From Arachis hypogaea (Eukaryota; Streptophyta; Magnoliopsida; Fabales; Fabaceae), in the NCBI RefSeq assembly GCF_003086295.3, contig NC_092045.1, positions 94,936,693 through 95,000,692 on the forward strand: a stretch of 64,000 nucleotides of DNA, read 5' to 3'. The position numbers were made by a program, and so were the translations under genes. The notes under the pieces were generated by a model. It was not told the origin of the DNA. It made no database searches and worked only from the letters and a program-made list of their open reading frames with translations. Positions 26,728 through 57,187 of this stretch are shown in pieces. The first letter of the stretch is position 1, and each line of letters opens with the position of its first letter.

Positions 26728-26732
26728 ACTGC
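26728..26732. other. Target site duplication ACTGC of element A (left)
   Basis: Sequence actgc precedes the 5' LTR and recurs perfectly at 36418-36422. Confidence 0.95.
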
Positions 26733-28520
26733 TGATGAGCGGATAATTTATACGCTTTTTGGCATTGTTTTTATATAGTTTTTAGTAAGTTTAAGCTACT
26801 TTTAGGGATGTTTTCATTAGTTTTTATGTTAAATTCACATTTCTGGACTTTACTATGAGTTTGTGTGTTTTTCTGTGATTTCAGGTAAATTCTGACTGAA
26901 ATTGAGGGATTTGAGCTAAACTCTGAAGAAGGCTGACAAAAGGACTGCTGATGCTGTTGGAATCTGACCTCTCTGCACTCGAAATGGATTTTCTGGAGCT
27001 ATAGAACTCCAATTGGCGCGCTCTCAACGGCGTTGGAAAGTAGACATCCAGGGCTTTCCAGCAATATATAATAGTCCATACTTTATTCGAATAATGATGA
27101 CGTAACATGGCGTTGAACGCCAAGTACAAACTGCTGTCTGGAGTTAAACGCCAGAAAAACGTCATGATCCGGAGTTGAACGCCCAAAACACGTCATAACT
27201 CGGAGTTCAACTCCAAGAGAAGCCTCAGCTCGTGGATTAATCAAGCTCAGCCCAAGCATACACCAAGTGGGCCCCGGAAGTGAATTTATGCATCAATTAC
27301 TTACTCCTGTAAACCCTAGTAGCTAGTCTAGTATATATAGGACATTTATCTATTGTATTAGACATCTTTGATCTCAGTTTTGTTTTATTCTTCATCTTAG
27401 GGGATCATTGATCACGTTAGAGAGGGCTGGCCATTCGGCCATGCCTGAACTCTTTGCTTATGTATTTTCAACGGTGGAGTTTCTGCACACCATAGATTAA
27501 GGGTGTGGAGCTCTGCTGCACCTCAAGTATTAATGAAATTCTATCTTCTTTTATTCAAATCTCTTTTAGTCTTATTCCAAGATATTCATTCGTACCCAAG
27601 AACATGATGAATGTTATGAGTCAGATTACCCTCATTATCATTCTCACTTATGAACGCGCGTGATTGACAACCACTTCCGTTCTACATGCAACAGAGCTTG
27701 AATGCGTATCTCTTAGATTCCCCATCAGAATCTTCGTGGTATAAGCTAGATAGATGGCGGCATTTATGAGGATCCGGAAAGTCTCACCTTGTCTGTGGTA
27801 TTCCGAGTAGGATCCTGGGAATCCGGAAAGTCCAACCTTGTCTGTGGTGTTCCGAGTAGGATTCCGGTGATGAATGACCGTGACGTGCTTCAAACTTTAA
27901 CCTGCTGGGCGTTAGTGACAAACGCAAAAGAGGGATTCTATTCCAGTAGGAGCGGGAACCAACCGGTGATTAGCCGTACTGTGACAGAGTGCGTTAGCAT
28001 AGTTTTCACTGCGAGGATGGGATGTAGCCATCAGCCATGGGTGATGCCTCCAGACTGGTTAGCTGTGCGAGTGACAGCCGCACAGGATATTTCCCCGTGA
28101 GGAATGAAAGTAGCCACAGTTGATGGTGAACCCCTATACAAAGCTTGCCATGGAAAGGAGTAAGAAGGATTGAGTAGAAGGAGTAGGAGAGCAGGCGTCC
28201 GAGAGCTCTACAGCATCTCCATCCGCTTATCTGAAATTCCTACCAATGAATCTGCATAAGTGTTCTATCCTTTTTATTATCTCTTTTTATTATTAATTCT
28301 CGAACCCATAAATAATGTTTAATCTGCCTGACTGAGATTTGCAAGGTGACCATAGCTTGCTTCATACCAACAATCTCTGTGGATTCGACCCTTACTCACG
28401 TAAGGTTTATTACTTGGACGACCCAGTACACTTGCTGGTTAGTTGAACGGAGTTGTGTCCACTCGTGCCAATTTCTAAAATCCAATTACAAGAAAATAGG
28501 AATCACAATTTCGTCCACCA
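26733..28520 (+). repeat. 5' LTR of element A (1788 bp)
   Basis: TGATGAGCGG...GTCCACCA. A TATA-like 'gtatatatagg' lies at 27331. Four palindromes of the GG(C/A)GTTNAAC(G/T)CC kind lie at 27107-27215. A 45-bp direct duplication around 'ccggaaagtc.aacctt' lies at 27771-27862. Open frames across the LTR are identical in both copies but show no protein signature. Confidence 0.95.
27771..27862. repeat. 45-bp direct duplication inside A's LTR
   Basis: Two tandem copies run from 'gatccggaaagtc' to 'tccgagtaggat'. The same pair occurs in the 3' LTR at 35668-35759, so it predates this insertion. Other LTRs here (1300-1350, 37640-37700) carry one copy. Confidence 0.85.
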
Positions 28521-28526
28521 AGTTTT

Positions 28527-28545
28527 TGGCGCCGTTGCCGGGGAT
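28527..28545 (+). other. Primer binding site, tRNA-Asp type (element A)
   Basis: TGGCGCCGTTGCCGGGGAT, complementary to the 3' end of tRNA-Asp, 6 bases after the 5' LTR. Confidence 0.93.
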
Positions 28546-30097
28546 TGTTCGAGTATGGACAACTGACGGTTCATCTTGTTGCTCAGATTAGGTAATTTTC
28601 TTTTCAAAAACTTTTTCAAAATTTTTTCTTTTCTTTTTCGTTTTCTCCAACTTTATTTTCGAAAAAATTAATAAAAATACAAAAAAAAATTAGAAAATCA
28701 TAAAAATCAAAAATACTTTGTGTTTCTTGTTTAAATCTTGTGTCAATTTTAAAGTTTGGTGTCAATTGCATGCTCTCAAAATTTTTCTTGCATTTTTTTC
28801 GAAAATCTCATGCATTCATAGTGTTCTTCATGATCTTCAAGTTGTTCTTGACAAGTCTTCTTGTTTGATCTTGATGAATTCTTATTTTGTGTTGTTTGTT
28901 GTTTTTCATGTGCATTTTTGCATTCATATTTTCCATGCATTAAAAAATTTCTAAGTTTGGTGTCTTGCATGTTTTCTTTGCATCAAAAATTTTTCAAAAT
29001 AATGTTCTTGATGTTCATCATGATCTTCAAAGTGTTCTTGGTGTTCATCTTGACATTCATAGCATTCTTGCATGCATCTTGTGTCTTGATCCAAAATTTT
29101 CATGTTTTGGGTCATTTTTGTGTTTTTCTTTAAAATTTAAAAATCAAAAAATATCTTTTCCTTATTTCCCTCCAAATTTTCGAAATTTTGGATTGACTTG
29201 GTCAAAAATTTTTAAAATTAGTTGTTTCTTACAAGTCAAGTCAAAATTTCAATTTTAAAAATCTTATCTTTTCAAAATCTTTTTCAAAAATCATATCTTT
29301 TTCATTTTTCTTATAATTTTCGAAAATTTCAAAAATTAGTTTTCAAAATATTTTCAAAAATCTTTTTCTTATCTTTTTATCAAATTTTCGAAAATTAGCT
29401 AACAATTAATGTGATTGGTTCAAAAATTTAAAGTTGTTACTTTCTTGTTAAGAAAGGTTCAATCTTTAAAGTTCTAGAATCTTATCTTGTAGTTTCTTGT
29501 TAGTTAAGTAATTTTAAAATTAAATCTTTTTCAAAATATCTTTTTCAAATATATCTTTTTATTTTTTATCTTATCTTTTTCAAAAATTTTTTATCTTTTT
29601 CAAAATTTGATTTCAAAATATCTTATCTAACTTCTTATCTTCTTATCTTTTTAAAATTTTGATTTCAAATCTTTTTCAATCAACTAACTAACTTTTTGTT
29701 TGTTTCTTATCTTTTTCAAAACCACCTAACTACTTTTCCCTCTTCTATTTTCGAAAATATCTCTCCCTTTTTCAAAAAATTCTTTTTAATTAATTAATTG
29801 TTTCATGTTTTAATTCTAATTACATTTTATCTCTAATTTTCGAAAATCACTAACTTTTTTTTTTTAAAAATTATTTTCGAAAAATTCCTTTCTCTTTTCT
29901 TCTTCTATTTAATTATTTAATTACTAACACTTCTCTTCACCCCTCTTCATTCATATCCTAACATCTCATCTCACATCTCTGCCATCCTCACAGTTGTGTT
30001 TCTTTTCCACTCTTCTTGTACCCCTTTCTTCTTCTACTAATATAAGGGAATCTCTATACTAGATTCTTTTTTCTTTTCTTGTTTTCTTCTCTCTCTT
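28546..30097 (+). other. T-rich untranslated leader of element A
   Basis: About 1.5 kb without a gene. It holds two AAGTTTGGTG motifs (28752 and 28953), repeated 'ttcttgatgttcatcttg' phrases, and about eight palindromes centred on TTCGAA, mostly TTTTCGAAAA (near 28655, 28797, 29178, 29318, 29386, 29750, 29838, 29875). It would be the 5' RNA leader where packaging signals are expected; that role is inference. Confidence 0.7.
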
Positions 30098-32416
30098 ATG
30101 AGCTGGAACAAGGATAAAGGCACTCTTGTTGAAGCTGATCTAGAACCTGAAAGGACTCTGAAGAGAAAATTAAGAGAAGCTAAATTACAACAATCCAGAA
30201 ATAACCTTTCAGAAATTTTCGAACAGGAGAAGGATATGGCAGCCGAAAATAATAATAATAATAATGCAAGGAGAATGCTTGGTGACTTCACAAAGCCAAC
30301 ATCCAAGTTTGATGGAAGAAGCATCTCCATTCCTGCCATTGGAGCTAATAACTTTGAGCTTAAGCCTCAACTAGTTGCATTAATGCAACAAAACTGCAAG
30401 TTTTATGGGCTTCCATCTGAAGATCCCTATCAGTTTTTAACTGAGTTTTTGCAAGTCTGTGATACTGTAAAGACGAATGGAGTTAATCCTGAAGTCTACA
30501 GACTCATGCTTTTCCCTTTTGCTGTAAGAGACAGAGCTAGAATATGGTTGGATTCACAACCTAAGGATAGCCTGGACTCCTGGGATAAGCTGGTCACTGC
30601 CTTCTTGGATAAATTCTTTCCTCCTCAAAAGCTGAGCAAGCTAAGAGTGGATGTTCAAACCTTCAAACAAAAAGATGGTGAATCCCTCTATGAAGCTTGG
30701 GAAAGATACAAGCAGCTGACCAAGAAATGTCCATCTGACATGTTTTCAGAATGGACCCTATTAGATATATTCTATTATGGTCTCTCTGAATTTTCGAAAA
30801 TGTCATTGGACCATTCTGCAGGTGGATCTATTCACCTGAAGAAAACGCCTGAAGAGGCTCAAGAACTCATTGACATGGTTGCAAACAACCAGTTCATGTA
30901 TACCTCTGAGAGGAATTCCGTGAATAATGGGGTACCTCAGAAGAAAGGAGTTCTTGAAATTGATGCTCTGAATGCCATATTGGCTCAGAACAAAATGTTG
31001 ACCCAACAGGTCAACATAATCTCTCAAAATCTGAATGGATTGCAACATGCATCCAACAATACTAGAGAGGCAGCTTCTGAAGAAGCTTATGATCCTGAGA
31101 ACCCTGCCATGGCAGAGGTTAATTACATGAGTGAACCTTATGGAAACACCTATAACCCATCATGGAGAAATCATCCAAATTTCTCCTGGAAGGATCAACA
31201 AAAGCCTCAACAAGGCTTTAACAATGGTGGACACAATAGGCTGAGTAACAGTAAGCCATATCCATCATCTTCTCAGCAACAGACAGAGAACTCTGAACAA
31301 AACACTTCTAATTTAGCCAATATAGTCTCTGATCTGTCAAAAGCCACTTTCAGTTTCATGAATGAAACAAGATCCTCCATTAGAAATTTGGAGGCACAAG
31401 TGGGCCAGCTGAGTAAGAAAGTTATTGAAACTCCTCCCAGTACTCTCAAAAGCAATACAGAAGAAAATCCAAAAGGAGAGTGCAAGGCCATTGATTTAAT
31501 CAAAGTGGCCGAATGCACTAGGGAGGAGGAGGACGAAAATCCTAGTGAGGAAGACCTCCTGGGACGTCCTTCAAGCAAGAAGGAGTTTCCTAATAAGGAT
31601 CCAAAGGAATCTGAGGCTCATACAGAGACCATAGAGATTCCATTAAATCTCCTTCTGCCATTCATGAGCTCTGAAGACTATTCATCCTCTGAAGAGGATG
31701 AAGATGTGACTGAAGAGCAAGTTGCTCAATATTTAGGAGCTATCATGAAGCTGAATGCCAAGTTGTTTGGTAATGAGACTTGGGAAAGTGAACCTCCCTT
31801 GCTCATTAGTGAACTAGATACTTGGATTCAGAATACTCTACCTCAAAAGAAACAAGATCCTGGCAAGTTCTTAATACCTTGTACCATAGGCACCATGAGC
31901 TTTGAAAAAGCTCTATGTGATCTTGGGTCAGGGATAAATCTGATGCCACTCTCTGTAATGGAAAAGCTGGGAATCATTGAGGTACAACCTGCCTTGTTCT
32001 CATTACAATTGGCAGATAAGTCAATGAGACAAGCTTATGGAATAGTAGAGGACGTGCTAGTAAAGGTTGAAGGCCTTTACATCCCTGCTGATTTCATAAT
32101 CCTAGACACTAGGAAGGAAGATGATGAATGCATCATCCTAGGAAGACCTTTCCTAGCCACAGCAGAAGCTGTGATAGATGTCAACAGAGGAGAGTTAGTC
32201 CTTCAATTGAATGGGGACTACCTTGTGTTCAAGGCACATGGCCATCCCTCTGTGACAAAGGAGAGTAAGCATGAAGAGCTTCTCTCAGTTCAGAGTCAAG
32301 AAGAGCCCACACAGTCAAACTCTAAGTTTGGTGTTGTGAGGCCACAACCAAACTCTAAGTTTGGTGTTCAAACTCCATATCCAAACTCTAAGTTTGGTGT
32401 GGGGACTACACACTAA
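30098..32416 (+). CDS. Gag-protease polyprotein of element A (772 aa), intact
   Basis: Starts at ATG 30098, the first ATG after the leader, and ends in a stop at 32414-32416. Residues 50-56 are an Asn run. Residues 58-260 are an Athila-type gag core (WLDSQPKDSLDSWDKLV, then FLDKFFPPQKLSKLR, then YEAWERYKQLTKKCP). No CCHC zinc knuckle is visible. Residues 290-330 and 405-445 are helical, and 470-545 are very acidic. Residues 590-710 resemble a retropepsin: CDLGSGINLMP (D608, with DLG instead of DTG/DSG) and IILGRPFLATA (about 679). The C-terminus has three NSKFGV repeats (741-767). No pol follows. Gag would build cytoplasmic particles; whether the protease cleaves is unknown. The intact frame fits a recent insertion. 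Confidence 0.93.
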   Translation: MSWNKDKGTLVEADLEPERTLKRKLREAKLQQSRNNLSEIFEQEKDMAAENNNNNNARRMLGDFTKPTSKFDGRSISIPAIGANNFELKPQLVALMQQNCKFYGLPSEDPYQFLTEFLQVCDTVKTNGVNPEVYRLMLFPFAVRDRARIWLDSQPKDSLDSWDKLVTAFLDKFFPPQKLSKLRVDVQTFKQKDGESLYEAWERYKQLTKKCPSDMFSEWTLLDIFYYGLSEFSKMSLDHSAGGSIHLKKTPEEAQELIDMVANNQFMYTSERNSVNNGVPQKKGVLEIDALNAILAQNKMLTQQVNIISQNLNGLQHASNNTREAASEEAYDPENPAMAEVNYMSEPYGNTYNPSWRNHPNFSWKDQQKPQQGFNNGGHNRLSNSKPYPSSSQQQTENSEQNTSNLANIVSDLSKATFSFMNETRSSIRNLEAQVGQLSKKVIETPPSTLKSNTEENPKGECKAIDLIKVAECTREEEDENPSEEDLLGRPSSKKEFPNKDPKESEAHTETIEIPLNLLLPFMSSEDYSSSEEDEDVTEEQVAQYLGAIMKLNAKLFGNETWESEPPLLISELDTWIQNTLPQKKQDPGKFLIPCTIGTMSFEKALCDLGSGINLMPLSVMEKLGIIEVQPALFSLQLADKSMRQAYGIVEDVLVKVEGLYIPADFIILDTRKEDDECIILGRPFLATAEAVIDVNRGELVLQLNGDYLVFKAHGHPSVTKESKHEELLSVQSQEEPTQSNSKFGVVRPQPNSKFGVQTPYPNSKFGVGTTH
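32320..32402 (+). repeat. Three tandem CTCTAAGTTTGGTGT units inside the ORF end
   Basis: The 15-base word occurs three times about 33 bases apart, coding the repeated NSKFGV. The first copy extends to AAGTTTGGTGTTGTGA, identical for 16 bases to the junction before the 3' LTR at 34617. Confidence 0.9.
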
Positions 32417-32484
32417 CATTGACCTGATCACCTTGTGGCTCCATGAGAGCCACTGTCAAGCTATTGACATTAAAGAAGCGCTTG

Positions 32485-32500
32485 TTGGGAGGCAACCCAA
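32485..32500 (+). other. Conserved post-ORF hairpin, element A version
   Basis: TTGGG, loop AGGCAA, CCCAA, 69 bases after the stop and preceded by 'gacattaaagaagcgcttg'. The same site exists after the Athila-like pol (25383-25400) and, degraded, in element D (20415-20450, minus strand). Confidence 0.75.
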
Positions 32501-32653
32501 TTTTATTTATCCAATTTTATTTTATTTTGTTTCTTTGTTATTTGTATGTTTAATTAGGTACATGATCATGAGGAGTCACGAAAAAATCAAAAAATTAAAA
32601 ACAGAGTCAAAAACAGAAGAAAAAAATTTTTCACCCTGGAGGATGCACGGGCT

Positions 32654-32890
32654 GGCGTTCAACGCCAGTAAGGTGCATCTGGCAGGCGTTTAACGCCAGA
32701 ACGTGCACCATTCTGGCGCTGAACGCCAGAAACAAGCAACAACCTGGCGTTAAACGCCAGGAAGGTGCACAGAGAGGACAAACTGGCGCTGAACGCCAGA
32801 AACAAGCATGAAACTGGCGTTCAACGCCAGAAACATGCATCACATGGGCGTTTAACGCCCAGAACATGCACCAATGGGCGTTTGAACGCC
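32654..32890 (+). repeat. Array of eight GGCGTTNAACGCC palindromes
   Basis: Copies start at 32654, 32685, 32715, 32746, 32785, 32816, 32846 and 32876. The arms are constant apart from GGCGCT in two copies, while the centre base varies (C, T, G, A, G, C, T, TG). Spacers of about 17-26 bases share 'gaacatgcac' or 'aaacaagca'. Chance frames cross the array on both strands; none is supported. Confidence 0.93.
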
Positions 32891-32948
32891 AGAATGATGC
32901 ATGGAGGCAATTTACATGCCTATATGGTGAAGGAATGGTATTTCTTTT

Positions 32949-33012
32949 CACCTCAGGATCTGTGGACCCCACAGGATCCCCACCTCAGGATCTGTGGACC
33001 CCACAGGATCCC
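32949..33012 (+). repeat. Two tandem 32-bp units with internal dyad
   Basis: Unit 'cacctcaggatctgtgg' plus 'accccacaggatccc' occurs twice. Each unit can fold, GGATCTGTGG against CCACAGGATCC with one bulge. Confidence 0.88.
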
Positions 33013-33399
33013 CACCTACCATATTCCCACCTTACCTTCTAATCCTATTTTTGTGATTTGAATTCCCCATGTCACAATTCCCAATCTTCTTCACCATTCA
33101 CATCAATCTCCTCTTCCCCATACACCCCACCTACCTCTACAATTCAACTTCTCTTTCCCACCCAATCCCACCCACATAGCCGAACCTACTTCTCCCCCTT
33201 TCTCCCATATTCTCTTCTTCTTCTTCTACTTTTATTTTCTTTCTTGCTTGAGGGCGAGCAATATTTTAAGTTTGGTGTGGTAAAAGCATAGCTTTTTTCT
33301 TTTTCATTACCATTAATGGCACCTAAGGCCAGAGAAACCTCAAAGGGAAGACAAAAGCTTCCACCTCTGAGTCTTGGAAGATGGAAAGACTCATGTAAA

Positions 33400-33433
33400 C
33401 TGGAATAGCTCAGTTGGTTAGAACATGTGGCTG
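33400..33433 (+). other. 5' half of a tRNA-Asn(GTT)-like sequence
   Basis: Thirty-four bases match positions 2-35 of plant tRNA-Asn as I remember it, with two differences. They include the whole A box (TAGCTCAGTTGG) and stop after CTG at the anticodon loop. The next bases belong to the element's own coding relic. It cannot form a full tRNA. Confidence 0.7.
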
Positions 33434-34616
33434 CAAATCAAGAGATCCCTGAGATACCTCAGGGAATAAATGATCCTCCACACAACTATTGGGAGCAACT
33501 ATGGATAGAAGCACCAAAATTACTGTAAATCATTCAACAGAAGCAAGGAAGAGACATAGAGGAGCTCAAAGAGCACCATTGGACCTTCAAGAAGGCACCA
33601 CCCTCACTCAGGTGGACTCATTCCTTGTTCTTTATTTTCTTTCTGTTTTTCGTTTTTAATATTGTGTTTATCTATGTTTTGTGTCTTTACTTCATGATCA
33701 TTAGTATGTAACCATGCCTTAAAGATTATGAATAATTCCATTAGTCCTTCACCTCTCTTAAATGAAAAATGTTTTAATTCAAAAGAACAAGAAGTACATA
33801 ATTTTCGAAATTATTAGTGAATTTAATTTAATTATATTGATGTGGTGGCAATAATTTTTGTTTTCTGAATGAATGAATGAACAGTGCATATTTTTGATCT
33901 TGTTGTTTATGAGTGTTAAAATTGTTGGTTCTTGAAAGAATGATGAACAAAGAGAAATGTTATTGATGATCTGAAAAACATCATGAAATTGATTCTTGAA
34001 GCAAGAAAAAGCAGTGAAAAAAAAAAGTGGCGAAAATTTTAGCAAAGATCCAAGGCTTTGAGCATTAATGGATAGGAGGGCCCAAGGAAATAAAATCCAG
34101 GCCTAAGTGGCTAAATCAAGCTGTCCCTAACCATGTGCTTGTGTCATGAAGGTCCAAGTGAAAAGCTTGAGACTGAGTGGTTAAAGTCGTGATCCAAAGC
34201 TAAAGAGTGTGCTTAAGAGCTCTGGACACCACTAACTGGGGACTCTAGCAAAGCTGAGTCACAATCTGAAAAGGTTCACCCAGTTATGTGTCTGTGGCAT
34301 TTGTGTATCCGGTGGTAATACTGGAAGACAAAGTGCTTAGGGCCACAGCCAAGACTCATAAAATAGCTGTGTTCAAGAATCAACATGCCTAACTAGGAAA
34401 GTCAATAACACTATCTGAAATTCTAAGTTCCTAGAGAAGCCAATCACTCTAAACTTCAAAGGAAAAAAGTGAGATGCCAAAACTGTTCAGAAGCAAAAAG
34501 CTACAAGTCCCGCTCATCTAATTAAATTAATATTCATTGGTATTTTGGACTTTATAGTATATTCTCTTCTTTTTATCCTATTTGATTTTCAGTTGCTTGG
34601 GGACAAGCAACAATTT

Positions 34617-34629
34617 AAGTTTGGTGTTG
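34617..34629 (+). other. Plus-strand priming region of element A
   Basis: AAGTTTGGTGTTG lies directly against the 3' LTR start, where a polypurine tract belongs. It is not purine-rich; the purine run 'ggggacaagcaa' lies 20 bases upstream. The same arrangement precedes the LTR at 336. Confidence 0.6.
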
Positions 34630-36417
34630 TGATGAGCGGATAATTTATACGCTTTTTGGCATTGTTTTTATATAGTTTTTAGTAAGTTTAAGCTACTTTT
34701 AGGGATGTTTTCATTAGTTTTTATGTTAAATTCACATTTCTAGACTTTACTATGAGTTTGTGTGTTTTTCTGTGATTTCAGGTAAATTCTGACTGAAATT
34801 GAGGGATTTGAGCTAAACTCTGAAGAAGGCTGACAAAAGGACTGCTGATGCTGTTGGAATCTGACCTCTCTGCACTCGAAATGGATTTTCTGGAGCTATA
34901 GAACTCCAATTGGCGCGCTCTCAACGGCGTTGGAAAGTAGACATCCAGGGCTTTCCAGCAATATATAATAGTCCATACTTTATTCGAAGAATGACGACGT
35001 AACTTGGCGTTGAACGCCAAGTACAAGCTGCTGTCTGGAGTTAAACGCCAGAAAAACGTCATGATCCGGAGTTGAACGCCCAAAACACGTCATAACTCGG
35101 AGTTCAACTCCAAGAGAAGCCTCAGCTCGTGGATTAATCAAGCTCAGCCCAAGCATACACCAAGTGGGCCCCGGAAGTGAATTTATGCATCAATTACTTA
35201 CTCATGTAAACCCTAGTAGCTAGTCTAGTATATATAGGACATTTATCTATTGTATTAGACATCTTTGATCTCAGTTTTGTTTTATTCTTCATCTTAGGGG
35301 ATCATTGATCACGTTAGAGAGGGCTGGCCATTCGGCCATGCCTGAACTCTTTGCTTATGTATTTTCAACGGTGGAGTTTCTGCACACCAAAGATTAAGGG
35401 TGTGGAGCTCTGCTGCACCTCAAGTATTAATGAAATTCTATCTTCTTTTATTCAAATCTCTTTTATTCTTATTCCAAGATATTCATTCGTACCCAAGAAC
35501 ATGATGAATGTTATGAGTCAGATTACCCTCATTATCATTCTCACTTATGAACGCGCGTGATTGACAACCACTTCCGTTCTACATGCAACAGAGCTTGAAT
35601 GCGTATCTCTTAGATTCCCCATCAGAATCTTCGTGGTATAAGCTAGATAGATGGCGGCATTTATGAGGATCCGGAAAGTCTCACCTTGTCTGTGGTATTC
35701 CGAGTAGGATCCTGGGAATCCGGAAAGTCCAACCTTATCTGTGGTGTTCCGAGTAGGATTCCGGTGATGAATGACCGTGACGTGCTTCAAACTTTAACCT
35801 GCTGGGCGTTAGTGACAAACGCAAAAGAGGGATTCTATTCCAGTAGGAGCGGGAACCAACCGGTGATTAGCCGTACTGTGACAGAGTGCGTTAGCATAGT
35901 TTTCACTGCGAGGATGGGATGTAGCCATCAGCCATGGGTGATGCCTCCAGACTGGTTAGCTGTGCGAGTGACAGCCGCACAGGATATTTCCCCGTGAGGA
36001 ATGAAAGTAGCCACAGTTGATGGTGAACCCCTATACAAAGCTTGCCATGGAAAGGAGTAAGAAGGATTGAGTAGAAGGAGTAGGAGAGCAGGCGTCCGAG
36101 AGCTCTACAGCATCTCCATCCGCTTATCTGAAATTCCTACCAATGAATCTGCATAAGTGTTCTATCCTTTTTATTATCTCTTTTTATTATTAATTCTTGA
36201 ACCCATAAATAATGTTTAATCTGCCTGACTGAGATTTGCAAGGTGACCATAGCTTGCTTCATACCAACAATCTCTGTGGATTCGACCCTTACTCACGTAA
36301 GGTTTATTACTTGGACGACCCAGTACACTTGCTGGTTAGTTGAACGGAGTTGTGTCCACTCGTGCCAATTTCTAAAATCCAATTACAAGAAAATAGGAAT
36401 CACAATTTCGTCCACCA
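34630..36417 (+). repeat. 3' LTR of element A (1788 bp)
   Basis: Same length as the 5' LTR with about 10 substitutions seen by eye and no indel. It is followed by the target duplication actgc (36418-36422). Confidence 0.95.
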
Positions 36418-36442
36418 ACTGCTCAATTCCACTTAGGTCCAT
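36418..36442 (-). pseudogene. Gag of element F, start codon part
   Basis: On the minus strand ATG at 36440-36442 opens MDLSGIEQS, and the frame passes through the ACTGC duplication into 26727. Element A therefore inserted nine codons into the gag of F. Confidence 0.75.
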
Positions 36443-45180: not shown

Positions 45181-45396
45181 GGTAAGGACAATAAAGTGGT
45201 AGACAAAGAATTTGTCCCTAATAGTAGTGATCCTTATTCATGGATAGGTTTTCCTGTAAGAGATTATGTGTCTTGGTTTAGCGACGAAGAAAGTGTCAGT
45301 CAACTAGGTAGTTCTGAGTGGGTGAGGAGGGATGAGGATCTCAAAGTTGAGTTTTTACCAAGCAATGTCTTTGATAGAATGTATTATAGGAATGAA
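45181..45396 (+). pseudogene. Unrecognised TE-type ORF, N-terminal part, split by element G
   Basis: An open frame with a basic start (KKKGKGKDNK) followed by DPYSWIGFPVRDYVSWFSDE and WVRRDEDLKVEFLP. I connect this, from memory, with the extra ORFs of legume Tat-type elements; I cannot name a domain. No ATG is seen; the frame is open to about 45100. Element G interrupts it at the duplicated ATGAR, and the frame continues at 57188 for about 20 codons to a stop. Confidence 0.45.
45392..45396. other. Target site duplication of element G (left), ATGAA
   Basis: It pairs with ATGAG at 57188-57192 with one mismatch. The reading frame of the interrupted ORF supports ATGAG as the original. Confidence 0.75.
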
Positions 45397-46659
45397 TGTA
45401 ACACCCTAATATTCAGATCCTTATGCTCGAGTCATAAGTCAATGATATTACGGTGGTACGACTCTCAGGTGGATTTTTAATATATAAATATAGGTAATTT
45501 CAAAAGGAGTATTAATCGAGAAGCCTGAAAGGAGTAGAAATAAAATCGCGAAGACGTATCACTCACGTTTCGACAGCGAAAAGTTAAACCGCGAAGCCGA
45601 AGCGATATACGGACAAGGCATAAAGGAGATTAAGAGATAGATAACAGATAGATATATATAACATAAATAAATAGCCACTAGTCGCGACCCGCGAAGTTTA
45701 GGCCGGCTAGGGTACAGTATGAAAGTAGTTGACAACAGTACATCCTAATCTCTCCCAAAGGAAACATAAGAGCCTCTATAGGCAAGTTCCAAAAGAGTTC
45801 AACACATAATATAATATCTTCTAAACAAAGGTGGAGAGATTCTAAGCAAAACACAAGTAGAGAAAATAAAGATCTTCGCCGGCTCTCAGACGAACCACAG
45901 CTCACTTCTGAGCACCTGGACCTGTATCTGAAAAACAAGAGATATATACGGAATGAGAACCCCGGGCCCATGGGTTCCCAGTACGGTAAAAGTGCCAAAT
46001 AAATACAATGCACTGTAATAAAAACTCACTAAGCATCCTAAACTCCTTTTCACCAAGTATCCAGCCTAGATTCTCGCTAATCCATAAATAGGCATCTATC
46101 GTAAGGGGATACTAAATCTAGTTCATGGTACACATGTTTCCCAACTTTCTGATTATTCCACGAATCAGACTCAGAATCATAAGCAAAACCATCACCAGTT
46201 ATTCTGCCTCAGCAACTCTATATCAATACATCATACCCTTGCCTGGAGCTAGTGAAATCACATCACTGCGTCTACCCAGGGGGCTCAAATGATCTCATTC
46301 AAAAATCATCATCATCATGCAATCGCATTATCAATTCATCTCATCAAGAACAGCCCCCAACATCCACCGACACCATCATGAGGGATCTCTTAGTTGTACA
46401 AACACAAGCAATACAGACAAGTAATACACAAATAAGGTACAAGTAGAACAAGTAGCACGTAATCAGGTAACATAGCATATATGATATAGAAATCCAAAAC
46501 AAATAGGCAAACCCAAACAATTCAAACATATGCAAATGATGTATGCCTGCCCTATGGCTGATGATATCATCTGTCGGTTATATAGCCAACCCGACATGTC
46601 CTGGTAGCTAACCATTGGACAGAAACACCCCTTGCGGAGCAAGTAGGTTTGAGCTACAA

Positions 46660-47190
46660 CCCCTTGCTACTACCCGCTCAACCCAGAGCCAGTGGAACAA
46701 CCACTACTGCGGCTACTACCCAGGCGGGTGTTTAAAAGCTCAACCTGGAGCGAGTGGAATCACCACTACTACCGCTACTACCCAGGCGTCACAGTCTCTA
46801 ACCTGGAGCAAGTGGGACGAACCACAACCCTTGCTACTACCCAGGTATCACAATCTCTGACCTGGAGCAAGTGGGACGAACCACAACCCTTGCTACTGCC
46901 CAGGTATCTCAAGCATTAACCCAGAGCAAGTGGGACAAACCACAACCCTTGCTACTGCCCATGTATTTTAAGCATATATTCATTCAATCTCAATTCATAT
47001 TATCAATCCTCATTGTTATCAAATCTCAAACATTTACCTGGAGCAAGTGGGACGAACCCCAACCCTTACTACTACCCAGGTACCAGAGTTACATTCATTC
47101 AAAACTCCATGATTAACTCATTTATCATAAACATCATTTTTCGTCTCATACCCGGAGCAAGTGGACTAGCCACTGCTACTACCCAGGGAA
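46660..47190. repeat. Tandem array of hairpin-forming units in G's 3' LTR
   Basis: About seven units share 'acctggagcaagtgggac' and 'ccttgctactacccaggt'. Within each, CCTGG..AGCAAG can pair with CTTGCT..CCCAGG. The 5' LTR has the same array at 53831-54361. Confidence 0.88.
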
Positions 47191-47637
47191 ACTCGTATCT
47201 CAGATAGTGAAAGTGCAAATCACAATTATCAATAATTCAGCATAAACATGCATGAATTCTCATCCATGGCTCAACATCCATATCAGCCATCCGGCTCACG
47301 GTTAAATCCATAACCAGCCAATATTCATAGCATACACAGCTATTCCGGCTCACGGTTCAATCCAGAACCAGCCAATTCATAAACAATTACGGCCCTTCGG
47401 CCAATGGCATAACAAGCACTTCCACCACCATCCTCCACATCTCACATAATCATCAATGATCCTCATTGATTATTCATTTTCCCCTTGCTTCACTCGCAAG
47501 TTACCTCATTCACTAGCCCTTTTCTAATAGCTAGGCACATCATAATGATTTAAGATATAAGTGGTGAGATCGGAGGCTTAGAAGTATGAGATTTGGCTTT
47601 TAAAACTCAACTATCAACTTTGGCATGAAAACAATGC

Positions 47638-47940
47638 CACGCGTACGCGTACTCCACGCGCACGCGTGGATGGCCTTAAAAACTCATTGACGCGCAAGCG
47701 TCATGCACGCTAACGCGTGGATTAAAAATTTGCCAAATCGACGCGCACGCGTCAACCACGCGTACGCGTGGATACTCTCGTGCCCCAGGCACAAAGCTGG
47801 CACAGTTCTGGCACAACTCTCTGGAAAATGGCTGGGCATTGGGTGCAGCATTATCGGCGCGCCCGCGCACATCACGCACACGCGTGGATGGCATTTTCTG
47901 GAAGATCGGCGCGTACGCGCCAAGTGCGCCCACGCGCAAG
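47638..47940. repeat. CpG-rich palindrome cluster in G's 3' LTR
   Basis: CACGCGTACGCGTA, CCACGCGCACGCGTGG, 'gacgcgcacgcgtc', CCACGCGTACGCGTGG and 'ggcgcgtacgcgcc' occur within 300 bases. The partner cluster is at 54809-55111. Confidence 0.93.
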
Positions 47941-50017
47941 GGGTTATTCTGCTAAAAATTTTCTAAGTTAAAAACTGCAGAATTCACAGCTTCAACCCCC
48001 AATCTTCCGACGGACATAACTTCCTCATTTTAAATCGTTTTTCACCCGTTCTTCGAACGGCATGGACATCCCGGATCTAATTTCATTTCTAAACAGATTT
48101 GGCACAAAACAAAGATCCGTAGTCCAAGTTATGTCCCGTCAAAGTATGCCCAAAAACCATGTTTTCATATAAAACCACAAAGTGCCATTTTCAAAACAAG
48201 CCATTTTCAACTCTTTTCAAAATCAACCAAAACATGCCAATTTCAACCCTTTTTGAAACCAATCAAAATATACCCAAAATCAACATCAAGCCTCCTCAAC
48301 TCATACATTAACACTTTACCACGAATCACAAAACCATCATATAACCATCTTTACCCATTCCAAGTAAATGGCTAAATTACAAACATATCAACATGTCTTA
48401 CATCCTTCCTCATCTCAATTTCCAACAATACTATCTCCAATCAACCATCATTATACATAATCAATATCATAATCACTATCACGTGGTTTCACCCCCAAAT
48501 CAACCTTAATCATTTCTCAAGCATATATCACAACATACATATCTCTCATGCATTATCATACCATCAAGGCATCAATAATCATACTCACATATATGACCAC
48601 ATAATATATCTCAACCAAAATCAAACATACCTCATCTATACTATTTCACCCAAAATTTACCAATTTCCACACTTCAATTCCTCAAACCTCATTATTCAAT
48701 AACCAACCCAATCATTCATATATTCATTATATGAAATTCATCCAATCACTTGTGTCATCATACAATGCACACATCAACTTACCTTCCTTACCTCTTTCCG
48801 GCCTCCGGCCCAAAATATACGGCCTCCGGCCCAATTTCACAATTTAAATGCATAAATCACAAATCAATACTCATTACCCAAAACATCAAATTTTCAATAC
48901 ACCAAGCATACAAGGCCACACAATTCTCAACCCAATCATTAATTCACATTACATACCAACTATGCATATTAGCACCAACCATTTACACAATCTAAACTTA
49001 ATCCTAGGGGCATCTAGCCTAGGAATTCTCATCACACCACACGGTACTTAAATGAAACTTAAACCGTACCTCTTGTAGCCAAATCAATTGAGCCTCTTCT
49101 TTAGAAGTCTCTACCAATCTTAGTCCCAAGCCTTACCAAAGCTCCTCAAGCAACACCAATCTTCCAATTGTGCACCAAGATCATCAAATACACTAACATA
49201 ACCAATATCACATACATACATCAACCTAGGGCTCATAAAAATGACAAATCACAAGGGTTTGAGCACTTCTTACCTCAGCCCATATGAAGTAGGGATAGAA
49301 CCCACTTAGAATCCATGTTGGAGTATCCCTAAACACCCAAAATCACAAGATTTCAACACTAACTTCCCAAAAACGTGTAACATAGGGAAATTTCGAAAAC
49401 TGGGCAGAGATGAATAGAATACTCACCACAAAACTTAGATAGAATTGTAGAGGATGAGAAGAGCGACGCGTGGCCGCAAACGGCTCGTCAATCGGAGCTC
49501 CGTAGCTCAAGTTATGGTGATTTGAAGATCAAAGAGAGTTAGGTTTTCTCTCTTCTCTCCTCTCTTCACTATTTCAGCGCCCCAACCCCTCTTTTAGGGT
49601 AAAAATGAGCTGAAATGCTCATAACTAATGTTTATATATGTTGGGTCTTGGGCCCACTTAGGCCCAATTCACTTATTTTTGTCCGTTGGCCCAATTTTGG
49701 ACCAAAACCTTTAACATTAGCGCTCTAAATCGCACTTCAAATATTTCTACCTCCCCTAATTATAATTCCTCATTTCTTAATCTTATTTACTCATAATCAA
49801 CTTTCTCAGCTGCAGTACCAGACAGGTCTCAGCCGGTACTGCCGGTCAAAATTTCACTGCGCGCCTTTACGCAGAAAACTATGTCTTCCGACTCGGAAAA
49901 ATTCACTGAATCCAAATATCATATTGAAATCATCAAATTCCAATTGCCAAATCTTCCAACCATATTCGCTCCTACTTACTCATTATTTAATTAATTTCGG
50001 TTAGACCGGGTATTACA

Positions 50018-52564: not shown

Positions 52565-52567
52565 TAA

Positions 52568-55500
52568 TGTAACACCCTAATATTCAGATCCTTATGCTCG
52601 AGTCATAAGTCAATGATATTACGGTGGTACGACTCTCAGGTGGATTTTTAATATATAAATATAGGTAATTTCAAAAGGAGTATTAATCGAGAAGCCTGAA
52701 AGGAGTAGAAATAAAATCGCGAAGACGTATCACTCACGTTTCGACAGCGAAAAGTTAAACCGCGAAGCCGAAGCGATATACGGACAAGGCATAAAGGAGA
52801 TTAAGAGATAGATAACAGATAGATATATATAACATAAATAAATAGCCACTAGTCGCGACCCTCGAAGTTTAGGCCGGCTAGGGTACAGTATGAAAGTAGT
52901 TGACAACAGTACATCCTAATCTCTCCCAAAGGAAACATAAGAGCCTCTATAGGCAAGTTCCAAAAGAGTTCAACACATAATATAATATCTTCTAAACAAA
53001 GGTGGAGAGATTCTAAGCAAAACACAAGTAGAGAAAATAAAGATCTTCGCCGGCTCTCAGACGAACCACAGCTCACTTCTGAGCACCTGGACCTGTATCT
53101 GAAAAACAAGAGATATATACGGAATGAGAACCCCGGGCCCATGGGTTCCCAGTACGGTAAAAGTGCCAAATAAATACAATGCACTGTAATAAAAACTCAC
53201 TAAGCATCCTAAACTCCTTTTCACCAAGTATCCAGCCTAGATTCTCATTAATCCATAAATAGGCATCTGTCGTAAGGGGATACTAAATCTAGTTCATGTT
53301 ACACATGTTTCCCAACTTTCTGATTATTCCACGAATCAGACTCAGAATCATAAGCAAAACCATCACCAGTTATTCTGCCTCAGCAACTCTATATCAATAC
53401 ATCATACCCTCGCTTGGAGCTAGTGAAATCACATCACTGCGTCTACCCAGGGGGCTCAAATGATCTCATTCAAAAATCATCATCATCATGCAATCGCATT
53501 ATCAATTCATCTCATCAAGAACAGCCCCCAACATCCACCGACACCATCATGAGGGATCTCTTAGTTGTACAAACACAAGCAATACAGACAAGTAATACAC
53601 AAATAAGGTACAAGTAGAACAAGTAGCACGTAATCAGGTAACATAGCATATATGATATAGAAATCCAAAACAAATAGGCAAACCCAAACAATTCAAACAT
53701 ATGCAAATGATGTATGCCTGCCCTATGGCTGATGATATCATCTGTCGGTTATATAGCCAACCCGACATGTCCTGGTAGCTAACCATTGGACAGAAACACC
53801 CCTTGCGGAGCAAGTAGGTTTGAGCTACAACCCCTTGCTACTACCCGCTCAACCCAGAGCCAGTGGAACAACCACTACTGCGGCTACTACCCAGGCGGGT
53901 GTTTAAAAGCTCAACCTGGAGCGAGTGGAATCACCACTACTACCGCTACTACCCAGGCGTCACAGTCTCTAACCTGGAGCAAGTGGGACGAACCACAACC
54001 CTTGCTACTACCCAGGTATCACAATCTCTGACCTGGAGCAAGTGGGACGAACCACAACCCTTGCTACTGCCCAGGTATCTCAAGCATTAACCCAGAGCAA
54101 GCGGGACAAACCACAACCCTTGCTACTGCCCAGGTATCTTAAGCATATATTCATTCAATCTCAATTCATATTATCAATCCTCATTGTTATCAAATCTCAA
54201 ACATTTACCTGGAGCAAGTGGGACGAACCCCAACCCTTACTACTACCCAGGTACCAGAGTTACATTCATTCAAAACTCCATGATTAACTCATTTATCATA
54301 AACATCATTTTTCGTCTCATACCCGGAGCAAGTGGACTAGCCACTGCTACTACCCAGGGAAACTCGTATCTCAGATAGTGGAAGTGCAAATCACAATTAT
54401 CAATAATTCAGCATAAACATGCATGAATTCTCATCCATGGCTCAACATCCATATCAGCCATCCGGCTCACGGTTAAATCCATAACCAGCCAATATTCATA
54501 GCATACACAGCTATTCCGGCTCACGGTTCAATCCAGAACAAGCCAATTCATAAACAATTACGGCCCTTCGGCCAATGGCATAACAAGCACTTCCACCACC
54601 ATCCTCCACATCTCACATAATCATCAATGATCCTCATTGATTATTCATTTTCCCCTTGCTTCACTCGCAAGTTACCTCATTCACTAGCCCTTTTCTAATA
54701 GCTAGGCACATCATAATGATTTAAGATATAAGTGGTGAGATCGGAGGCTTAGAAGTATGAGATTTGGCTTTTAAAACTCAAATATCAACTTTGGCATGAA
54801 AACAATGCCACGCGTACGCGTACTCCACGCGCACGCGTGGATGGCCTTAAAAACTCATCGACGCGCAAGCGTCATGCACGCTAACGCGTGGATTAAAAAT
54901 TTGCCAAATCGACGCGCACGCGTCAACCACGCGTACGCGTGGATACTCTCGTGCCCCAGGCACAAAGCTGGCACAGTTCTGGCACAACTCTCTGGAAAAT
55001 GGCTGGGCATTGGGTGCAGCATTATCGGCGCGCCCGCGCACATCACGCGCACGCGTGGATGGCATTTTCTGGAAGATCGGCGCGTACGCGCCAAGTGCGC
55101 CCACGCGCAAGGGGTTATTCTGCTAAAAATTTTCTAAGTTAAAAACTGCAGAATTCACAGCTTCAACCCCCAATCTTCCGACGGACATAACTTCCTCATT
55201 TTAAATCGTTTTTCACCCGTTCTTCGAACGGCATGGACATCCCGGATCTAATTTCATTTCTAAACAGATTTGGCACAAAACAAAGATCCGTAGTCCAAGT
55301 TATGTCCCGTCAAAGTATGCCCAAAAACCATGTTTTCATATAAAACCACAAAGTGCCATTTTCAAAACAAGCCATTTTCAACTCTTTTCAAAATCAACCA
55401 AAACATGCCAATTTCAACCCTTTTTGAAACCAATCAAAATATACCCAAAATCAACATCAAGCCTCCTCAACTCATACATTAACACTTTACCACGAATCAC

Positions 55501-57187
55501 AAAACCATCATATAACCATCTTTACCCATTCCAAGTAAATGGCTAAATTACAAACATATCAACATGTCTTACATCCTTCCTCATCTCAATTTCCAACAAT
55601 ACTATCTCCAATCAACCATCATTATACATAATCAATATCATAATCACTATCACGTGGTTTCACCCCCAAATCAACCTTAATCATTTCTCAAGCATATATC
55701 ACAACATACATATCTCTCATGCATTATCATACCATCAAGGCATCAATAATCATACTCACATATATGACCACATAATATATCTCAACCAAAATCAAACATA
55801 CCTCATCTATACTATTTCACCCAAAATTTACCAATTTCCACACTTCAATTCCTCAAACCTCATTATTCAATAACCAACCCAATCATTCATATATTCATTA
55901 TATGAAATTCATCCAATCACTTGTGTCATCATACAATGCACACATCAACTTACCTTCCTTACCTCTTTCCGGCCTCCGGCCCAAAATATACGGCCTCCGG
56001 CCCAATTTCACAATTTAAATGCATAAATCACAAATCAATACTCATTACCCAAAACATCAAATTTTCAATACACCAAGCATACAAGGCCACACAATTCTCA
56101 ACCCAATCATTAATTCACATTACATACCAACTATGCATATTAGCACCAACCATTTACACAATCCAAACTTAATCCTAGGGGCATCTAGCCTAGGAATTCT
56201 CATCACACCACACGGTACTTAAATGAAACTTAAACCGTACCTCTTGTAGCCAAATCAATTGAGCCTCTTCTTTAGAAGTCTCTACCAATCTTAGTCCCAA
56301 GCCTTACCAAAGCTCCTCAAGCAACACCAATCTTCCAATTGTGCACCAAGATCATCAAATACACTAACATAACCAATATCACATACATACATCAACCTAG
56401 GGCTCATAAAAATGACAAATCACAAGGGTTTGAGCACTTCTTACCTCAGCCCATATGAAGTAGGGATAGAACCCACTTAGAATCCATGTTGGAGTATCCC
56501 TAAACACCCAAAATCACAAGATTTCAACACTAACTTTCCAAAAACGTGTAACAGAGGGGAATTTCGAAAACTGGGCAGAGATGAATAGAATACTCACCAC
56601 AAAACTTAGATAGAATTGTAGAGGATGAGAAGAGCGACGCGTGGCCGCAAACGGCTCGTCAATCGGAGCTCCGTAGCTCAAGTTATGGTGATTTGAAGAT
56701 CAAAGAGAGTTAGGTTTTCTCTCTTCTCTCCTCTCTTCACTATTTCAGCGCCCCAACCCCTCTTTTAGGGTAAAAATGAGCTGAAATGCTCATAACTAAT
56801 GTTTATATATGTTGGGTCTTGGGCCCATTAGGCCCAATTCACTTATTTTTGTCCGTTGGCCCAATTTTGGACCAAAACCTTTAACATTAGCGCTCTAAAT
56901 CGCACTTCAAATATTTCTACCTCCCCTAATTATAATTCCTCATTTCTTAATCTTATTTACTCATAATCAAATTTCTCAGCTGCAGTACCAGACAGGCCTC
57001 AGCCGGTACTGCCGGTCAAAATTTCACTGCGCGCCTTTACGCAGAAAACTATGTCTTCCGACTCGGAAAAATTCACTGAATCCAAATATCATATTGAAAT
57101 CATCAAATTCCAATTGCCAAATCTTCCAACCATATTCGCTCCTACTTACTCATTATTTAATTAATTTCGGTTAGACCGGGTATTACA
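52568..57187 (-). repeat. 5' LTR of element G (4620 bp)
   Basis: Nearly identical to 45397-50017. It repeats GATGATATCATC (53731-53742), the hairpin array (53831-54361) and the CpG cluster (54809-55111). Confidence 0.95.

What the first reader, a model, noticed from the sequence alone, without database searches (positions are those of the whole stretch)
33400..33433. 5' half of a tRNA-Asn captured inside a retrotransposon
Thirty-four bases of element A's 3' untranslated region match the 5' half of plant tRNA-Asn(GTT) with two differences and end within the anticodon loop. The next bases are the element's own coding relic. Start near tRNA position 2 and stop at the anticodon is what a reverse transcriptase would leave after copying a tRNA 5' half and running off its end. 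The intact A box could also act as an internal Pol III element.
Basis: partly seen in the sequence, partly recalled or inferred. Interest (0 to 1): 0.82.

Follow-up and report, generated by a model that had tools for sequence, protein, structure and literature searches.

The report
Retrotransposon patched with transfer-RNA pieces
A peanut retrotransposon family lost a gene and carries, at the scar, a patchwork that looks copied from host transfer RNAs and whose front end differs between subfamilies, which suggests that a reverse transcriptase has jumped onto transfer RNAs more than once.

Summary
The 34-base match to tRNA-Asn(GTT) at 33400-33433 is real (32/34; score 28 against at most 13 in 60 shuffles) and lies in a 9.7-kb non-autonomous LTR element (26733-36417). 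It is not simply a 5' half ending at the anticodon. (1) It sits where about 766 nt of a PF20167 ORF are missing; relatives with continuous sequence there exist (30 of 30 fetched with the ORF as query). (2) A search by flanks alone gives 778 hits. Of the 100 listed, 33 carry a tRNA-Cys-like 5' part, 51 a Lys-like one, 16 tRNA-Asn. The bases before the fixed flank AATCAAGAG are GCA in 93 of 100, as in tRNA-Cys(GCA). So the bases after the 'half', and its two 'differences', look like older tRNA-Cys sequence. (3) Sampled Cys copies keep a purine tract that Lys-like and Asn copies lack. Best reading: a reverse transcriptase jumped onto tRNA-Cys, copied to its 5' end and returned upstream, deleting the ORF; later jumps onto tRNA-Asn and probably tRNA-Lys replaced the 5' part. 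The first bases of tRNA-Cys and tRNA-Lys are recalled, not read. Pol III promoter: not supported.

The parts
26733..28520 (+). 5' LTR of element A (TGATGAGC...CCACCA)
   Evidence: 1788 nt, 10 differences from the 3' LTR; 5-bp flanking repeat ACTGC at 26728-26732 and 36418-36422
28527..28544 (+). primer-binding site TGGCGCCGTTGCCGGGGA; complementary to the 3' end of tRNA-Asp as recalled, so the primer is not tRNA-Asn, -Cys or -Lys
   Evidence: sequence; tRNA assignment recalled, not tested
30098..32416 (+). gag-protease ORF (Retrotrans_gag PF03732, E 9.6e-19); the other stop-to-stop frames of the element are 118 aa or shorter, so no open pol frame (degraded pol was not searched by profile)
33316..33398 (+). 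start of the PF20167 (Athila-type additional) ORF, ending in element sequence ...GACTCATGTAA
   Evidence: alignment to L039 7007-7100; domain in L039
33399..33422 (+). tRNA-Asn(GTT) positions 1-24 (linear count); position 1 reads A here, G in most copies seen; contains the A box TAGCTCAGTTGG at 33406-33417
33423..33433 (+). ACATGTGGCTG: also in Lys-like copies and in one Cys-5' copy; probably older insert sequence, although it resembles tRNA-Asn as well
33434..33444 (+). CAAATCAAGAG: with the preceding G it resembles the anticodon and 3' anticodon stem of tRNA-Cys(GCA); overlaps similar element sequence, so the border is open
   Evidence: AATCAAGAG was fixed in the pattern; tRNA-Cys bases after GATC are recalled
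33445..33640 (+). element sequence downstream of the lost ORF segment (CCCTGAGATACCTCAGGG hairpin, then relic)
34630..36417 (+). 3' LTR of element A

Best explanation
A gag-protease-only Athila-type LTR retrotransposon lost most of its PF20167 ORF in one event in which the reverse transcriptase, making minus-strand DNA, left the element RNA at a short stretch resembling the 3' side of the tRNA-Cys anticodon arm, copied a tRNA-Cys to its 5' end, and returned to the element RNA about 766 nt further upstream. The tRNA-like scar then offered homology (D-arm, TAGCTCAGT..GGT..AGA) to other host tRNAs, and in later rounds the enzyme switched within it onto tRNA-Asn and probably tRNA-Lys, again copying to the tRNA 5' end. 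This exchanged only the 5' part. The window copy is the Asn version. Shown here: the deletion, three 5' types between the same flanks, the Asn join at tRNA position 1, the sense orientation. Inferred: RNA template, the tRNA-Cys and tRNA-Lys 5' ends (recalled letters, one Rfam alignment), order of events, D-arm homology as the guide.
For: ORF gap exactly at the insert; PF20167 E 3.8e-31 in L039; 30 of 30 fetched relatives continuous there with 767-768 nt between anchors, chosen by a query that held the whole ORF. Three 5' types in the 100 listed flank-only hits (33 Cys, 51 Lys-like, 16 Asn). In the freely read bases before the fixed AATCAAGAG, 93 of 100 read GCA, 5 ACA, 2 GTA. 14 of 16 Asn rows there match tRNA-Asn 24 of 24 from position 1. 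The 5-bp anticodon stem is complete in 30 of 33 Cys-5' rows, and in none of 51 Lys-like and 16 Asn rows, as expected of mosaics. Rfam's tRNA model aligns Cys-type L117 from model position 1 at its GGG (25.3 bits, E 0.036, below the gathering score of 29). L117 matches peanut tRNA-Cys 30 of 32 over positions 8-39. Upstream, 11 of 15 relatives read CATCTCAAGGGTGC and Cys rows mostly CAT(C/G)TAAAGGGTTTATAGC, an overlap of GGGT. Purine tract: found in 29 of 30 intact loci, a long A-rich form in 3 of 3 Cys-5' loci examined, short in 3 of 3 Lys-like loci and in 51 of 52 Asn copies (49 by pattern, 2 by eye).
Against: The pattern fixed AATCAAGAGATCC, so part of the shared 3' end is by construction, and copies with another 3' end could not appear. 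Relatives without an insert have ATCAAGAGATCCC at this place (16 of 29), so this stretch need not be tRNA-derived. The Lys-like type differs from the Cys type mainly in six bases (GCCGTC) and over positions 8-39 is closer to tRNA-Cys (28/32) than to tRNA-Lys (25/32). Rfam found a tRNA in 2 of 3 Cys-5' loci and 0 of 3 Lys-like loci at E up to 1; in the second (L121, E 0.57) the alignment starts two bases after the first G. None in the window. Trees and state counts of Asn copies gave no clear order, and flank identity to intact copies does not separate the types. One Asn copy (L099) has GAGCTTG and fits no simple order.
Confidence: 0.61

Rival explanations
1. A single capture of a tRNA-Asn 5' half (cleaved in the anticodon loop), with the other 5' types being unrelated captures at the same place.
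For: 33400-33433 matches 32 of 34 and stops in the anticodon loop; the following ATCAAGAG could be element sequence; tRNA halves occur in LINE-1 chimeras (PMC13174262, passages).
Against: The types lie between the same flanks, mostly share the core GAACAT, which tRNA-Asn does not have, and read GCA before AATCAAGAG in 93 of 100 rows. Independent captures would not share these.
Confidence: 0.1
2. DNA-level origin: a chromosomal copy broke, and end joining filled the gap with sequence copied from a tRNA-Cys gene; later gene conversion with tRNA-Asn and tRNA-Lys genes changed the 5' part.
For: Deletion plus short templated filler with short overlaps at the ends is also what plant break repair leaves (recalled; no call).
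Against: The join falls at tRNA position 1 for Asn (genes read), for Cys by one Rfam alignment and for Lys-like by recall. The bases before it look like the element's own CATCT(C/A)AA(A); the one leader resemblance, CATGTAA of a tRNA-Asn gene, also stands before Cys-type inserts. Orientation is sense, as minus-strand template switching requires.
Confidence: 0.16
3. A tRNA-derived SINE inserted in the element and then decayed.
For: tRNA-like 5' part with an A box; Helenus elements are thought to arise by SINE insertion (PMC10886601, section 4.2).
Against: No B box with up to 2 mismatches and no run of four T in 33380-33620; about 766 nt missing at the insert. No SINE library was searched.
Confidence: 0.05
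4. Only one tRNA (Cys) was captured; the Lys-like and Asn 5' parts arose by mutation or by recombination with other tRNA-bearing elements, not with host tRNAs.
For: The Lys-like change is only six bases, and GTGGCT differs from TTGACT by two point changes.
Against: The Asn 5' part has 24 of 24 bases of tRNA-Asn, its longer D-loop included, in 14 of 16 rows; mutation alone would hardly give that.
Confidence: 0.12

Closest known systems
tRNA/LINE-1 chimeras with tRNA halves (PMC13174262, passages read)
   Same: Fragment of about half a tRNA joined to a retroelement during reverse transcription.
   Different: LINE-1, 21 loci, tRNA mostly antisense; here an LTR element, sense, internal, spread to hundreds of copies and with differing tRNA 5' parts.
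Helenus TRIMs (PMC10886601, abstract and section 4.2 read)
   Same: Non-autonomous LTR retrotransposons holding a tRNA-like sequence.
   Different: Helenus carries it in the LTRs, in miniature elements; here it is internal in a 9.7-kb element and without a B box.
tRNA-Gly linked to HIV DNA and, as cited there, MMLV DNA (PMC12220202, abstract and passages read)
   Same: Host tRNA copied by a retroviral enzyme and linked to deletions.
   Different: There a whole or nearly whole tRNA at a DNA end or between terminal repeats, explained by priming; here an internal scar with the 5' part of tRNAs, inherited and spread.
Neurospora retroplasmid with an inserted tRNA-like sequence (Mohr et al. 2000; only the title seen, in a reference list; paper not held)
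   Same: tRNA-like insert in a retroelement.
   Different: Retroplasmid; details not read.
Athila elements with an additional ORF (PMC11728184, one passage read)
   Same: PF20167 similarity of an Athila ORF, as in L039.
   Different: Element A and L039 have no open pol frame; element A has lost most of this ORF at the tRNA scar.

Membership tests
Athila-type Ty3/gypsy LTR retrotransposon (non-autonomous) | two LTRs with target-site duplication | tested here: met
   LTRs of 1788 nt with 10 differences, ACTGC repeats
Athila-type Ty3/gypsy LTR retrotransposon (non-autonomous) | gag domain | tested here: met
   PF03732 E 9.6e-19
Athila-type Ty3/gypsy LTR retrotransposon (non-autonomous) | reverse transcriptase placing it in the Athila clade | not testable with these tools
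   no open pol frame in element A or among the four L039 ORFs of 150 aa or more; lineage rests on PF20167 in L039 and on the recalled PBS
Athila-type Ty3/gypsy LTR retrotransposon (non-autonomous) | additional ORF with PF20167 | tested here: inconclusive
   present in the relative L039 (E 3.8e-31); element A keeps only sequence from its start and from beyond its end
Captured tRNA 5' half (anticodon-cleaved) | captured tRNA sequence ends in the anticodon loop | tested here: not met
   GCAAATC, tRNA-Cys-like, follows; exact 3' border open
Captured tRNA 5' half (anticodon-cleaved) | starts at tRNA position 1 | tested here: met
   for Asn; one Rfam alignment for Cys; Lys-like start recalled only
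Helenus / TRIMp3 | tRNA-like sequence with Pol III promoter in the LTRs | tested here: not met
   insert at 33399-33444 lies between the LTRs; B box absent with up to 2 mismatches
tRNA-derived SINE | A and B boxes and a tail | tested here: not met
   A box only, no run of four T in 33380-33620

The most novel reading that the evidence does not exclude
The scar works as a tRNA exchange cassette: once a tRNA piece is inside an LTR element, the element's RNA keeps pairing with host tRNAs packaged with it, so its tRNA 5' end is renewed again and again (Cys, then Lys-like and Asn), perhaps because a fresh tRNA mimic helps packaging, priming or escape from tRNA-fragment control.
Probability: 0.15. 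Interest if true: 0.86.

Novelty: new variant of a known kind. Interest (0 to 1): 0.66.

Why it matters
If true, it is a high-copy record of a reverse transcriptase using host tRNAs as templates in the middle of LTR-element replication. It would show that one capture makes further exchanges easier, explain one way in which non-autonomous elements lose genes, and give a natural system in which tRNA packaging in plant virus-like particles can be read from genome sequence. It also warns that a single-copy reading of a 'tRNA half' can be a mosaic of two tRNAs.

Tried and rejected
Rejected: tRNA-gene leader in the insert. CATGTAA before the Asn part matches the leader of one tRNA-Asn gene (8 nt with G1; chance about 0.0005 for CATGTAA, 0.004 for ATGTAA), and for a while I took it as evidence of a pre-tRNA or gene template. 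One search shows the same CATGTAAA before some Cys-type inserts and CATCTAAA before more of them, so it is element sequence.

Rejected: a junction of tRNA-Asn with the element at G34. I first explained CAAATC as filler or as a slip in GCAAACAAGAGACCCCTCTCATCAAGAG; one search made an older tRNA-Cys-like stretch the better account, though the border stays open.

Led nowhere: a search for copies with the flanks but a short gap (0 hits); the tree of Asn copies and the count of intact-like states, both without clear order; Rfam on the window site (five chance matches, no tRNA); folding of four stretches, one of them a real tRNA-Asn (z -0.53 to -1.87, nothing special); upstream pieces of four copies (L113-L116), which turned out to lie in the GGCGTT-repeat region, so those copies are shorter than the intact ones and their ORF was not verified.

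Full report
Where it is. The window is G000:C10:94936693-95000692 of a 2.56-Gb genome in 440 contigs. Element A has LTRs at 26733-28520 and 34630-36417 (1788 nt each, 10 differences) with the 5-bp repeat ACTGC on both sides. At recalled substitution rates that is about 0.2-0.35 million years. It has a gag-protease ORF (30098-32416; gag domain); every other stop-to-stop frame of the element is 118 aa or shorter. Sense is +. ARAGORN finds no tRNA gene in the window.

The match. 33400-33433 equals tRNA-Asn(GTT) with two differences. Best ungapped score 28, against at most 13 in 60 Markov resamplings and 10 on the other strand. The 32-nt core occurs 177 times with up to one mismatch, 0 in the reversed control; among the 100 listed places are tRNA-Asn genes (GAGCGTG) and element copies (GAACATG). 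32 places match a 53-nt tRNA-Asn stretch with up to three mismatches, 0 in the control. In most element copies the base before C is G, that is, tRNA position 1.

What it replaces. The neighbouring relative L039 has, at this place, an ORF with the Pfam domain PF20167 (E 3.8e-31), a domain reported for an ORF of sunflower Athila (PMC11728184, one passage). L039's own frame shifts near its end, and L039 too has no open pol frame. Element A aligns to L039 up to about 7100 and again from 7871, so about 766 nt are missing, and the tRNA-like stretch sits in the gap. A query with the whole ORF gave 8065 candidates, of which 40 were scored and 30 fetched, L039's own place among them. In 30 of 30 the sequence runs on over the site with 767-768 nt between my two anchors. 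Copies without the ORF could hardly rank in that search, so this shows that continuous relatives exist, not how common they are; reading frames were checked in L039 only.

The turn. A pattern made of the two flanks (GATGGAAAGAC and AATCAAGAGATCC, 22-52 free bases between) gave 778 hits, 0 in the reversed control. The first 100 are listed (C1 and part of C2). Sorted by script: 51 Lys-like (mostly GCCGTCATAGCTCAGTGGTAGA), 33 Cys-like (mostly GGGTTTATAGCTCAGTGGTAGA), 16 Asn. None of the 100 lacked a tRNA-like 5' part, but copies with other spacing or changed flanks could not appear. In the free bases just before AATCAAGAG, 93 read GCA, 5 ACA and 2 GTA. The core is GAACAT in most rows, by eye GAATAT in nine and AAACAT in one. 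Peanut tRNA-Cys genes, named here by their anticodon, read TAGCTCAGTGGTAGAGCATTTGACTGCAGATC at positions 8-39 (7 of the 27 places whose text was shown; 53 hits in all, 0 in the control). Eight of those 27 read the same but end in GCAAATC or a one-base variant, which I take for element copies that still keep GAGC; their flanks were not read. Of six Cys/Lys-type loci, Rfam's tRNA model found two of the three Cys-5' loci (L117 25.3 bits, E 0.036; L121 20.9 bits, E 0.57; gathering score 29) and none of the three Lys-like ones; L117 starts at model position 1 with its first G, L121 two bases later.

Why a mosaic. The 5-bp anticodon stem TTTGA/TCAAG is complete in 30 of 33 Cys-5' rows. The 51 Lys-like and 16 Asn rows have TGTGG/TCAAG or a variant with one non-pair, two in one row. 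The core GAACAT is common to the three types although tRNA-Asn has GAGCGT. Hence in the window only 33399-33422 needs tRNA-Asn; 33423-33444 is probably older. A possible intermediate exists: L120 has the Cys 5' part with GTGGCTG and keeps a long tract, though it may be a recombinant.

Order. A purine tract upstream of the site is present in 29 of 30 intact loci (one not matched by my pattern). The 3 of 3 Cys-5' loci examined have a long, more A-rich form. It is short in 3 of 3 Lys-like loci and in 51 of 52 distinct Asn copies (49 by pattern, L026 and L036 by eye; L110 is garbled). So the Cys form is nearest to the intact element, and Lys-like and Asn share a later loss. Lys-like versus Asn is not resolved; one upstream background (CTAATATAAG) occurs with both 5' parts, which suggests recombination between elements. 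Substitution identity of the flanks to intact copies does not separate the types.

Mechanism. Shown: deletion, sense orientation, the Asn join at position 1, and an overlap upstream (11 of 15 relatives read CATCTCAAGGGTGC; Cys rows mostly CAT(C/G)TAAAGGGTTTATAGC). Downstream, relatives without an insert read ATCAAGAGATCCC (16 of 29) or ATCATGAAATCCC (most), which resembles tRNA-Cys 38 onward (GATC read, the rest recalled). That is either a landing site for the enzyme or a reason to doubt that these last bases are tRNA-derived. Inferred: the enzyme left the element RNA at this overlap, copied tRNA-Cys to its 5' end and returned at GGGT; later, within the D-arm homology, it took tRNA-Asn, probably tRNA-Lys, and again ran to position 1. 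The primer-binding site fits tRNA-Asp (recalled), so the captured tRNAs are not the primer.

Promoter idea. A box TAGCTCAGTTGG at 33406; no B box with up to two mismatches, three weak hits at three; no run of four T in 33380-33620. A Pol III promoter is unlikely.

Distribution. All 40 scored hits (of 615 candidates) lie on C2-C10. Of the 117 hits the 100 listed lie on C1-C10 (five copies are listed twice). knows 10 further C10 places; six of them were read and fit the pattern (L001, L003-L007). So at most 11 hits, or 7 if the other four fit too, can lie elsewhere. The Asn form is largely or wholly on C1-C10.

Literature. Ten full-text searches showed no title or abstract start reporting tRNA parts exchanged inside an LTR element. 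I read passages or sections of six papers (PMC13174262, PMC10886601, PMC11963269, PMC7264820, PMC12220202, PMC11728184). The library holds open-licence papers only, and the peanut retrotransposon paper that I tried was not held.

Noticed in passing
L099 (G000:C3:52578850-52579600): One Asn-type copy reads TTAGAGCTTG where the others seen read TTAGAACATG or a near variant (tRNA-Asn TTAGAGCGTG): either a longer remnant of the exchange or two private changes.
   Followed up: partly
places, e.g. G000:C10:42987877 and G000:C4:104369405: Another group of copies keeps GCAAACAAGAGACCCCTCTCATCAAGAGATCCC at the downstream site, but in 4 of 4 pieces read (L113-L116) the GGCGTT repeats lie roughly 600 nt nearer than in L039; perhaps a second, independent loss of the same ORF.
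   Followed up: partly
window 32640-32900: Array of short imperfect palindromic units (CTGGCGTTNAACGCCAG) between the gag-pro ORF and the ORF relic; similar units lie in the LTRs.
   Followed up: no
window 33198-33281 and 34550-34630: The stretch before the 3' LTR (GCTTGGGGACAAGC..TTTAAGTTTGGTGT) recurs at 77% before the ORF relic, as if there were a second polypurine-like tract.
   Followed up: no
window 45395-50017 and 52566-57187: Two 4.6-kb direct repeats, 99.5% identical: probably the very long LTRs of another young element.
   Followed up: no
window 33447-33464: CCCTGAGATACCTCAGGG forms a hairpin where the T arm of the tRNA would be; a similar stretch is present in intact relatives, so it is element sequence.
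   Followed up: partly
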